Assembly (NCBI GenBank): GCA_943704525.1
Contig: CALSCQ010002676.1
Location: forward strand, 1-40,076
Length of the DNA: 40,076 nucleotides
Direction of reading: 5' to 3'
DNA from: Pigoraptor vietnamica
Lineage: Eukaryota; Opisthokonta; Filasterea
In this document: piece by piece, positions 7,383 to 10,286 of the stretch
How the letters are laid out: every line of letters begins with the position of its first letter
How positions within the stretch are numbered: position 1 is the first letter of the stretch
Made by a program: the position numbers and the translations under genes
The notes under the pieces: generated by a model
Database searches by the model: none
The model's input: the letters and a program-made list of their open reading frames with translations, nothing else
Told to the model about the DNA's origin: nothing

Positions 7383-10286
7383 ATGAAGTTTGCGCACCGT
7401 CTCATCAGCCAGACACACGCGCCATGGTGGGTGAATGGCGCTGGCCACGTGCGCGCGCGCGCGCGTGTGTGTGTGTGTGTGTGTGTGTGTGTGTGTGTGT
7501 GTGTGTGTGTGTGTGTGTGTGTGTGTGTGTGTGTGTGTGTGTGTGTGTGTGTGTGTGTGTGTGTGTGTGTGTGTGTGTGGTGTGTGTGTGCGTGTGTGTG
7601 TGTCTGTGTGTGTGTGTGCTGTATTTGTGTGGGAGAGACGGAGGACGACATGCTCTGCTTGCTCACTCGTGCAAAATGCAGGGCCGACAACTACATCAGC
7701 TTCAACGACCTCAAGGAGATCCTCCTCTCCTCGCGCGAGAGGCGCCGTTCGATTAGCCCGACTTCCGGCATGCTCGGTGCGTCGAGAGGCTTGCATGTGA
7801 ATGCTGTCTGCGAGGTATTCATGCCAACGGACTTGCTGATGTGTTTGACGCGTGACACAGGTGCTGACGAGGACACGTGCGCCGCGGGCGACTCGCGCTC
7901 GTTCGTCGAGCGACTAGACGAGGAGATCAACAAAGTGAACGCCTTCTTCATGCACAAGTCGGAAGCACTGACGAACCAACTCACAAGCCTCGCATCGGAG
8001 GTGCGAGGGGATCGTTGTTTGCTGACGTGACATGCGTGCGTGCCCTGCTCAATGTCGCCTTCATGCGTCTGTGTTGAGCGCGGTTGCTTGTTGGTTGTTG
8101 CGTGCAGGCGGCTGTCTTTGCCGACATGACGGAAACGGAGCGCGTGCGCCTTGAGAAGGAATTGCGGCAGAATTTTCACGAGTTGTTCGTCGAGATGCAC
8201 TTGCTGAACGAGTTTGGGGCTCTCAATTACGAGGGATTCACTCGCATTATCCGGAAGGTACGTCGCTCGTCGCATCGCATGTCTCATTTTTGTACTCAGC
8301 GCGCTTGCCGGACACTTCCGTCTGTGTGTGGGCAGCTGATGTGTGATGTGCGTTGTCTGCGCTTGCCGTTTCGTCTCACGGACGAAGGAGACGGGTAGCG
8401 CACAGAGGATTGGCGGCTGACGGGAGTCTTCGTCCTTGACGCGCAGCACGACAAGATCCTCACGAACGTCGCCCCTCTGAAAGACAAGTACGCCGTCATT
8501 CTGGCGGCCAAGGACTTCAACAAGTCGGACTCCGTGTCTCGCCTCACGAAGGAGGCCGAGGTGCGCGCTCGGCACACGCACACACGCACACGCGCACACA
8601 GTGCGCGCGATCGATGCTGCTTCTATTCGCTCGCTTCAGCTATGTCCCCCTACCCACCATAACCATAGACGTGCTCCGCTCGATTATTGGCCGTAGGCTC
8701 ACTCTGCCACTACTTTTATTGTTCTGCGTTTCAGAATGTGTACGCGGATGCCTTTGAGGGAGCCAACAGGCGAAGGGCGGCGTCCATTCTCGCCGCGCTC
8801 ATTCAGAACGGTGCGTATATTGCGACCGGCTCCCACTTTGGCCCGCCCATCTGATTCATCTTGCGCCAAATGGAATCGATGGACACACCGTAATACTCTG
8901 CAGAGCCAACATGACCCCTTTTGCTGTCGAAGCCCCATACACTGTATATGTGCGGCGCTTTCTCTCCTTGCTTTGACGTCGTAATGGGCGTGTGTATTGC
9001 GACGATCCACCGTCGTCCGCACGTGTCCTCCGAACAATTTCCGTGAATTCAATGGCCTTGTTTTCGCCGTTCCCAGACTATCGCCTGAAGCCGAAGGACG
9101 TCCCGTGCGACCTGCTAAGCAAGAAGGGCTGGATCATCGACATGGACGGCGTTATCTACTACCAGAACCACCTCCTCAACGGCGTCATCGAGTTTGTCGA
9201 GTGGCTCAAGCGCGGGGACCGCCGCTTCCTCTTCCTCACGAACAGCAGGCACGTGGCAGTCGTTTTGCGGGAGAGTCTGAACGCTTCAACGCGCGCACAT
9301 ATGCCTTCATTGTACCCCCTTGCCACACATGCACACTCGAATGACATTGCGCTTTCTCTTACATGCCTCGTGTCGTGCAGCGAGCGGTCGCCGAAGGAGC
9401 TACAGGCGAAGCTTGCGCGGCTGGGCATTCACGTCGACGACAGCCAGTTCTACACGTCCGCGCTGTCCACTGCCGAGTTTCTCTCCCGCCAAAAGCCGAA
9501 CGGTTCCGCGTTTGTGATTGGGGAGGCCGGTCTCATATCGGCGCTGTATGCCGTCGGCTACACGATGAACGAGATTGATCCGGACTATGGTGAGAGGCGA
9601 GCGTGAACAAGGACGCCTGTCGCCGCCACTCGCTGTGTGCGCACGTGCACCCCTTTTCTTCTTTTTCTTTACAACCGTCTCTCTCTCTCTCTGCCAGCTA
9701 CTAACTATGTGTGCGCGTGTGTGGCATCGCAGTGGTTATTGGAGAGACGCGCAACTACAATTACGAGCGCATGCAGCTCGCGGTCAACCTCGTCCGCCGC
9801 GGGGCTAAGCTTATTGGCACCAACGTCGACGTGTATGACAAGTCGCTGAACGGCGTGAACCCCGGCACTGGCTGCCTCGTCGCGCCGATCGAGCTGGCGA
9901 CGGGCGCCAAGGCGTACTATCTCGGTGAGTTTTGTCCTGAAGTTACGCTAGTTTCTTTCCCCGTGTTTCGTAAGCGGAGTTTAGCTCACTCTCGCGTTTT
10001 GACATACACAGGGAAGCCCAATCCGCTCATGCTGCGGCTGGCCATGCGCAAGCTCGGGTGCGATCCGAAGGACACTGTGATTATCGGCGACCGCATGGAC
10101 ACGGACATCATCGGCGGCATCGAGAGCGGCATCACGACCGTCCTCGTGCTGAGCGGCGTGACGACGATGGAGGAGTTGAACCGCTACGCATATCGGCCCG
10201 AGCACATCCTCGGCAGCGTCGGCGACATTATGAGCCTCACAAAGATGGAGCACTCGCCGCTCTCGAAAGCAAGGCAGTTGAACTAA
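7383..10286 (+). CDS. SPX domain joined to NagD-type HAD phosphatase (or two adjacent genes)
   Basis: Ten exons give one 488-residue frame: 7383-7426, 7682-7776, 7861-8000, 8108-8257, 8447-8560, 8735-8810, 9077-9248, 9381-9589, 9733-9924, 10012-10286. Residues 1-206 are an SPX domain. It starts MKFAHRLISQ, has W15 and Y19, then F22 and K26 in the first ligand-binding helix, and NYEGFTRIIRKHDK in the basic helix that binds inositol pyrophosphates in other SPX proteins. The rest is a C2-cap HAD phosphatase close to bacterial NagD: IIDMDGVIYYQN (nucleophile Asp), FLTNSS, FYTSALSTAEFL, VIGETRNYNYERM, GKPNP (Lys) and IIGDRMDTDIIGG. NagD and PGP relatives hydrolyse nucleotide or glycolytic phosphomonoesters; the substrate here is unknown. 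Intron 7 is GC-AG. Alternatively an SPX-only protein ends at a stop at 8853 and a 290-residue phosphatase starts at an in-frame ATG at 9052. Confidence 0.75.
7451..7618 (+). repeat. (GC)n(TG)n microsatellite inside SPX intron 1
   Basis: About 14 bp of alternating GC run into roughly 114 bp of pure TG, followed by about 40 bp of interrupted TG. It fills most of the 255-nt first intron of the SPX gene. The strictly alternating purine-pyrimidine sequence is the classic Z-DNA-forming type. Confidence 0.95.
8811..9076 (+). other. Junction between SPX and phosphatase parts: intron or intergenic
   Basis: Exon 6 ends AAC G before GTGCGT at 8811. An acceptor CCTTGTTTTCGCCGTTCCCAG ends at 9076 and is followed by AC TAT CGC. 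Splicing restores GAC TAT CGC (IQN-DYRL) in phase, and the 266-nt length fits other introns here. The competing reading keeps the SPX frame open to TGA at 8851-8853 and starts the phosphatase at ATG 9052, whose first codons would overlap the pyrimidine tract. Confidence 0.6.

What the first reader, a model, noticed from the sequence alone, without database searches (positions are those of the whole stretch)
7383..10286. Candidate SPX-NagD phosphatase fusion
SPX domains sense inositol pyrophosphates and report phosphate status. Known partners are transporters, polyphosphate polymerase, RING ligases, kinase inhibitors and a glycerophosphodiesterase. Here an SPX domain with its basic RKHDK helix splices in phase into a complete NagD-like HAD phosphatase. 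I know of no described SPX-HAD enzyme. If real, it would be a phosphatase directly gated by cellular phosphate state. The competing reading is two tandem genes about 200 bp apart.
Basis: partly seen in the sequence, partly recalled or inferred. Interest (0 to 1): 0.85.

Follow-up and report, generated by a model that had tools for sequence, protein, structure and literature searches.

The report
Phosphate-sensor domain fused to NagD-like phosphatase
An unidentified microbe with a nucleus appears to carry one gene that joins the cell's standard phosphate-sensing domain (SPX) to a bacterial-type phosphate-releasing enzyme, which could let phosphate status control that enzyme directly; no RNA has yet shown that the two halves are joined.

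Summary
A ten-exon + strand model, 7383-10286, gives 488 residues: an SPX domain (1-~206), a short linker, and a complete NagD-like HAD-IIA phosphatase (223-470) with its catalytic residues. The host is an unnamed intron-rich eukaryote.

Everything turns on intron 6 (8811-9076). It is phase-compatible, lies at the domain boundary, and both sites fit this genome's splice signals; an in-phase pair as good arose in 175 of 5000 random placements. Its 266 bp lies within the lengths measured (68-307). The rival start (ATG 9052) has T at -3, against a purine in 6 of 6 SPX starts read. Codon use does not decide. I put a single spliced gene at about 0.87. No transcript or second species was available.

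Likely function: a phosphomonoesterase of small organic phosphates, modulated by inositol pyrophosphates. Basic ligand positions are kept, but the conserved Tyr22 is Phe, a change that together with Y19F made yeast VTC ligand-insensitive, so gating is inferred and may be weakened.

A second SPX-phosphatase architecture (SPX-PAP2) lies elsewhere in the genome. No paper found describes SPX-NagD, but no eukaryotic protein database could be searched. New variant of a known kind.

The parts
7383..7426 (+). exon 1, start codon and first SPX helix (MKFAHRLISQTHAPW)
   Evidence: splice model; A at -3 of the ATG; codon score -0.02 per codon, not coding-like by itself
7682..7776 (+). exon 2, SPX, contains F22 and K26
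7861..8000 (+). exon 3, SPX
8108..8257 (+). exon 4, SPX basic helix (R139, R142, K143)
8447..8560 (+). exon 5, SPX (starts HDKIL, K146)
8735..8810 (+). exon 6, C-terminal stretch of SPX (NVYADAFEGANRRRAASILAALIQN)
8811..9076 (+). intron 6, junction of SPX and HAD; ACG|GTGCGT ... CCCAG|ACT, phase 1, 266 bp
   Evidence: donor 7.75 bits, acceptor 6.26 bits with matrices trained on other introns; in-phase pair as good in 175 of 5000 random placements
9077..9248 (+). exon 7, linker, HAD motif I (DMDGV, D228, D230) and motif II (T261)
9381..9589 (+). exon 8, HAD-IIA domain
9733..9924 (+). exon 9, HAD-IIA domain
10012..10286 (+). exon 10, HAD motifs III (K399) and IV (D424, D429), stop codon

Best explanation
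One spliced gene encodes a two-module enzyme with no membrane domain recognised. The N-terminal SPX domain is a receptor for inositol (pyro)phosphates; the C-terminal HAD-IIA domain, of the bacterial NagD kind, hydrolyses a small phosphomonoester through an aspartyl-phosphate on D228 with Mg2+. Binding of the phosphate-status ligand to SPX would change the orientation of SPX against the catalytic domain and so alter its activity. The expected sign is inhibition when inositol pyrophosphates (hence phosphate) are high and release when they fall, so that the enzyme frees phosphate from internal organic phosphates in need. Shown here: both domains, their catalytic and basic residues, the phase-compatible splice, and inositol-pyrophosphate kinase-type genes in the genome. 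Inferred: joining in mRNA, substrate, gating and its sign.
For: SPX and HAD-IIA domains above curated cut-offs with PDB relatives across each. Strong in-phase splice pair at the module boundary: the four bacterial homologues aligned begin a few residues before the first beta strand, near where exon 7 begins. D228, D230, T261, K399, D424, D429 are invariant among 5 of 5 aligned sequences. Positions K26, R139, R142, K143, K146 are basic (mapped by me from AtSPX1 numbering in PMC7810988, through the rice SPX2 alignment). Weak context of the rival start codon. The genome has an IPK-family gene and a PPIP5K-type gene (one exon above the cut-off, one below). Of the HAD-IIA loci found this is the only NagD-type one; the other four fit CECR5 (C1018, C993), HAD-IIA-hyp3 (C145) and PGP_euk (C92) best, three of them as partial exon matches below cut-off. 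A second SPX-phosphatase gene, SPX-PAP2, is in the same genome.
Against: No transcript. No second species with the architecture was found (viral contigs; bacterial and archaeal genomes, HAD part only; plasmids; phages; none of these collections is meant to hold eukaryotes). The 14-codon read-through after exon 6 (GAYIATGSHFGPPI) scores 0.18 bits per codon: below nine of ten exons, but above about 97% of 2000 stop-free non-coding windows, and 13% of coding windows score no better, so codon use does not refute tandem genes. The first eight codons from ATG 9052 score neutral (0.03 per codon). A TGTA-type element follows the SPX stop of the tandem reading (8943) as one follows the glycerol kinase stop (7146), while none follows the HAD stop. 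The intron 6 acceptor is near the bottom of the training range (6.26 in 6.1-12.7), though three of seven other introns of this gene score lower. F22 replaces the conserved ligand tyrosine.
Confidence: 0.6

Rival explanations
1. Two tandem genes: a stand-alone SPX protein ending at 8854 and a NagD-like phosphatase starting at ATG 9052, 197 bp apart.
For: Both frames are open with a usable stop and ATG; the read-through peptide is not clearly non-coding and the start of the rival frame is neutral; a TGTA-type element follows the rival stop; the upstream glycerol kinase frame ends 279 bp before the SPX start, so short spacers exist here.
Against: An in-phase splice pair matching the genome's signals is expected by chance in about 3.5% of placements (175 of 5000). 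T at -3 of ATG 9052 against a purine in 6 of 6 SPX starts read; C291 and C896 starts were not read. The other seven SPX loci found each have a partner domain downstream (by adjacency except C299, spliced through; C291's SPX match and C896's transporter match are below their cut-offs).
Confidence: 0.11
2. A true fusion whose SPX is no longer a responsive ligand sensor but a tether, dimer interface or constitutive brake.
For: F22 in place of the conserved Tyr; Vtc3/Vtc4 Y19F,Y22F complexes were partly active without ligand and insensitive to it (PMC10167327, passages).
Against: Y19 is kept, and K26 and the four basic helix positions remain basic; the single change was not the one tested in that paper, which changed both tyrosines.
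Confidence: 0.2
3. The HAD domain acts on the ligand itself: SPX recruits inositol (pyro)phosphates and the phosphatase trims them, a feedback loop.
For: Physical coupling of an inositol-pyrophosphate binder to a phosphomonoesterase, if the fusion is real (inference).
Against: Characterised relatives act on small monoesters: the K-12 gene is annotated UMP phosphatase; PDB relatives are named nitrophenyl-, pyridoxal-phosphate and glycerol-3-phosphate phosphatases. I recall no inositol-pyrophosphatase of the HAD-IIA type (recall, no search).
Confidence: 0.04
4. Misassembly joined two unrelated stretches inside intron 6.
For: The assembly is in 1395 contigs and read depth is not available.
Against: Base composition of intron 6 is close to introns 5, 7 and 8; exons on both sides share codon use; the matching splice halves would have to arise by chance.
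Confidence: 0.02

Closest known systems
Vtc4 (SPX-TTM polyphosphate polymerase, VTC complex)
   Same: N-terminal SPX preceding a catalytic domain in phosphate metabolism; SPX controls catalysis (PMC10167327, abstract and passages)
   Different: Catalytic domain is a polyphosphate polymerase in a membrane complex; here a HAD phosphatase, with no membrane domain matched in Pfam (no transmembrane predictor was run)
Gde1/Pho81-type SPX-ankyrin(-GDPD) proteins
   Same: SPX with a phosphoester hydrolase module (recalled for Gde1); two SPX loci with ankyrin repeats downstream are in this genome
   Different: GDPD fold and ankyrin repeats, phosphodiesterase (recalled); here HAD-IIA and no ankyrin match
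E. coli NagD/UmpH and actinobacterial HAD-IIA hydrolases
   Same: Whole catalytic domain aligned: 39% (K-12 UmpH), 46% (Rubrobacter), 44% (Arthrobacter) and 48% (Nocardia) identity, catalytic residues invariant
   Different: Stand-alone bacterial proteins, no SPX in the alignment; the fusion scores 231 bits against NCBIfam's NagD equivalog cut-off of 368
SPX-PAP2 gene of the same genome (C299)
   Same: SPX plus a phosphatase domain in one spliced frame
   Different: PAP2 superfamily, not HAD; 24% identity between the SPX parts
Plant ITPK4 (HAD-like domain plus inositol phosphate kinase)
   Same: A HAD-like fold in an inositol-phosphate enzyme (PMC7614388, abstract and passages)
   Different: The HAD-like domain is joined to a kinase and has an altered motif I (same passages); no SPX described in them

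Membership tests
SPX domain proteins (PF03105) | Pfam profile match above gathering score | tested here: met
   62.2 bits against 27.8, E=1.2e-16; aligned over residues 1-198 to XPR1 chains
SPX domain proteins (PF03105) | Phosphate-binding cluster Tyr-Lys-Lys (AtSPX1 Y25, K29, K139) | tested here: not met
   F22, K26, R142: tyrosine lost, charges kept (positions from PMC7810988 passage). I take this to bear on ligand response rather than on domain membership
SPX domain proteins (PF03105) | Lysine surface cluster (AtSPX1 K136, K140, K143) | tested here: met
   R139, K143, K146: all basic, one Arg for Lys
SPX domain proteins (PF03105) | Binding of inositol pyrophosphates | not testable with these tools
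   needs protein; the genome has IPK- and PPIP5K-type genes
HAD-IIA subfamily phosphatases (TIGR01460) | Profile above curated cut-off | tested here: met
   125.4 bits against 100.15
HAD-IIA subfamily phosphatases (TIGR01460) | HAD motifs with catalytic residues | tested here: met
   D228, D230, T261, K399, D424, D429 invariant among 5 of 5 aligned sequences
NagD equivalog (PRK10444, UMP phosphatase) | Score above equivalog cut-off | tested here: not met
   231.2 bits against 368, though the best-scoring family: NagD-like, not NagD
Single SPX-HAD transcript | mRNA joining 8810 to 9077 | not testable with these tools
   no transcript data; splice-signal test only

The most novel reading that the evidence does not exclude
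This organism puts phosphatases themselves under SPX control as a class: a NagD-type enzyme and a PAP2 enzyme, each fused to an SPX, release phosphate from organic phosphates only when inositol pyrophosphates fall. That would be a post-translational phosphate-salvage arm beside the known transport, storage and transcription arms.
Probability: 0.3. Interest if true: 0.75.

Novelty: new variant of a known kind. Interest (0 to 1): 0.56.

Why it matters
Known SPX effectors move, store, polymerise or signal phosphate. A phosphatase carrying its own SPX would link the phosphate signal to phosphate release inside one polypeptide. If soluble, it would be a compact system in which SPX gating of catalysis can be measured directly, which membrane-bound VTC and XPR1 make hard. 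The natural Phe at the ligand tyrosine also tests how much of that pocket a working SPX needs.

Tried and rejected
Relatives of the fusion: viral contigs (one stretch matched a pattern, no relative); bacterial and archaeal genomes with the HAD part (41 stretches matched a pattern, two Pelosinus HAD relatives at 32%); plasmids (146 records, 20 listed, 0 covering 80% of the query; the listed matches lie in residues 211-481); phages (14 records, 10 listed, 0 covering 80%; the listed matches lie in residues 208-475). None of these collections is meant to hold eukaryotes, so absence says little.

Naming the organism: an 18S fragment gave no match (the tool warns that this shows nothing) and no light-harvesting family was found.

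Papers: 'SPX domain' + 'haloacid dehalogenase' + 'domain architecture' 0; a five-term search 42, 25 listed; 'SPX domain' + 'NagD' 0; a three-of-six search 16, of which PMC8187734 uses SPX as the name of a network, not the domain (passages); 'SPX domain' + four evolution terms 0; a four-of-five PAP2 search 61, 15 listed; as in the full report. PMC10511240 was seen in passages and is not used.

Gene-end signals: the pattern list found TGTACA at 7146 after the glycerol kinase stop and TGTATA at 8943 after the rival SPX stop, and nothing after the HAD stop; with three places this decides nothing, but it leans against my reading. In one search the codon score and start context printed for the rival ATG were one base off; the right values are.

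Alternative for intron 7: by reading the sequence, a GT donor at 9253 with an acceptor ending at 9384 also keeps frame and length (NSRHRSPKE). The GC-AG reading (NSSERSPKE) is preferred because its acceptor ends TGCAG and because relatives have TNNS/TNYP there. This does not affect the fusion.

Full report
What is there. The window lies in an unnamed eukaryotic assembly (G000, contig 1110; 32.5 Mb in 1395 contigs). On the + strand, ten exons between 7383 and 10286 join into one open frame of 488 residues. Eight of nine introns are GT-AG; intron 7 is read as GC-AG. Pfam finds SPX (62.2 bits, cut-off 27.8), Hydrolase_6 (86 bits) and Hydrolase_like (85.4 bits). Against PDB sequences the C-terminal half matches E. 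coli NagD (2c4n, E=1.2e-57, residues 223-470) and the N-terminal half matches SPX domains of VTC3 (9.4e-14) and XPR1 (3.9e-13). NCBIfam puts the enzyme in HAD-SF-IIA above cut-off, with the NagD model as best hit but below its equivalog cut-off (231 against 368 bits).

Is it one gene? The question is intron 6, 8811-9076. To learn this genome's splice signals without using that intron, I aligned E. coli GlpK, UbiB and RecQ across introns to genes of this genome. Fifteen junction pairs served as training: 14 of the 15 in the glycerol kinase gene (one doubtful GC-type dropped) and one of the seven in the UbiB-like gene; the other six UbiB and all five RecQ junctions were dropped as unclear. With these the intron 6 donor scores 7.75 bits (training range 6.6-11.3) and the acceptor 6.26 bits (training range 6.1-12.7). 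In the window 44 of 2718 GT sites and 107 of 2053 AG sites score at least as well; after adding seven other introns of this gene to the training, 28 and 156. Between 8735 and 9130 this donor and this acceptor are each the best. An in-phase pair at least as good fell in matching places in 175 of 5000 random placements (all). The 22 introns of the combined training set are 68-263 bp long and six introns of the C299 gene are 101-307 bp; intron 6 has 266. The junction sits where a module boundary should be: the SPX match ends in exon 6, and exon 7 starts about 16 residues before the HAD domain, close to where the four bacterial homologues start.

The tandem-gene reading needs an SPX ending at 8854 and a phosphatase starting at ATG 9052, 197 bp on. 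That ATG has T at -3; the six SPX starts that I could read (C923, C736, C949, C238, C299 and this gene) have a purine there, while those on C291 and C896 were not read. The read-through peptide after exon 6 is undecided: 0.18 bits per codon, below nine of the ten exons (0.42-0.88; exon 1 is -0.02) but above about 97% of 2000 stop-free non-coding windows, with 13% of coding windows no better. The first eight codons from ATG 9052 score 0.03 per codon. A TGTA-type element follows the rival SPX stop and the glycerol kinase stop but not the HAD stop, which leans slightly the other way. In total I hold the fusion at about 0.87 and tandem genes at about 0.11; this is a judgement, not a computed posterior.

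Context in the genome. A search with PF03105 found SPX exons on seven other contigs, one of them (C291) below the cut-off. It did not list the window gene itself, whose SPX is split over short exons, so the number is a lower bound. Downstream of those seven lie VTC and DUF202 (C923), EXS (C736 and C291), a CitMHS-like match (C896; 28 bits, below its cut-off of 31.9), ankyrin repeats (C949), ankyrin repeats and a GDE1-like C2 domain (C238) and PAP2 (C299). Only C299 was spliced through by me; the others are by adjacency. C299 gives a 580-residue SPX-PAP2 protein (SPX 59.6 bits, PAP2 44.1 bits). So SPX occurs twice with a phosphatase here. The other four HAD-IIA loci found fit CECR5 (C993 above cut-off, C1018 below), HAD-IIA-hyp3 (C145, below) and PGP_euk (C92, below) best, the last three as exon pieces; the NagD-type enzyme was found only as this fusion. 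An IPK-family gene and a PPIP5K-type gene suggest that the cell can make inositol pyrophosphates.

How it may work. D228, D230, T261, K399, D424 and D429 are invariant in the alignment with K-12 UmpH, Rubrobacter, Arthrobacter and Nocardia homologues, so an active Mg-dependent aspartyl-phosphatase is likely (the roles of these residues are general HAD knowledge). The K-12 relative is annotated UMP phosphatase. A phosphate-starvation-induced intracellular HAD nucleotidase is described in fission yeast (PMC13059787, abstract and passages), which makes nucleotide salvage a sensible guess but no more. On the sensor side, the positions equal to AtSPX1 Y25, K29, K139 and K136, K140, K143 (PMC7810988, one passage) are F22, K26, R142 and R139, K143, K146; the mapping is mine, through the VTC3 and rice SPX2 alignments. 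In yeast, Vtc3/Vtc4 with Y19F and Y22F were partly active without ligand and insensitive to it (PMC10167327, passages). Here Y19 is kept and only position 22 is Phe, so response may be reduced or altered. The sign of control is my extension of the INPHORS scheme (PMC7381174, passages), in which export and storage of phosphate are switched on, and the starvation programme off, by inositol pyrophosphates; the same passages report conflicting data for Pho91 and Pho81, so the sign is uncertain.

What is known. In the held papers 'SPX domain' with 'NagD' gives 0 papers. 'SPX domain' with 'haloacid dehalogenase' gives 12 papers, 11 listed; by title and abstract start none describes such a fusion, and of these I looked into two (PMC7614388 and PMC13059787, passages). 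With 'HAD superfamily' there are 4, 3 listed, none by title and abstract start. With 'PAP2 superfamily' there are 0. With 'gene fusion' and 'protist' there is 1, on yeast vacuoles, not opened. Subfamilies named for plants are SPX, SPX-EXS, SPX-MFS and SPX-RING (PMC5795055, passages). No eukaryotic protein database was searchable, so the architecture may already sit unremarked in one.

Verdict. A real, probably functional gene with a new SPX partner; a new variant of a known kind. Gating is plausible and untested.

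Noticed in passing
L029 (G000 C299) 3807-6731: Seven-exon gene encoding SPX fused to a PAP2 superfamily phosphatase, 580 residues, clean splice signals; no held paper pairs 'SPX domain' with 'PAP2 superfamily'.
   Followed up: partly
window 7682-7776 (residue 22): The conserved SPX ligand tyrosine is Phe in this gene, while the SPX starts on C923, C949 and C299 have Tyr at that place by eye.
   Followed up: partly
window 9249-9380: Intron 7 is best read as a GC-AG intron (AG|GCACGT).
   Followed up: partly
window about 3621-7103: A glycerol kinase gene with some 14-15 introns lies directly upstream on the same strand; some HAD-IIA enzymes are glycerol-3-phosphate phosphatases.
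   Followed up: no
window about 7460-7630: Intron 1 is mostly a (GT)n microsatellite; such repeats also appear in many other loci read here.
   Followed up: no
window about 11128-12930: A gene that by eye encodes an N-terminal signal-like stretch, a membrane segment and a RING-H2 finger.
   Followed up: no
window 19790-23524: A single open frame of 1245 codons, long next to intron-rich neighbours; it looks repeat-helical by eye only.
   Followed up: no
L026 (C949) and L028 (C238): Two SPX loci with ankyrin repeats downstream, one with a GDE1-like C2 domain, like fungal Pho81/Gde1 (likeness recalled).
   Followed up: partly
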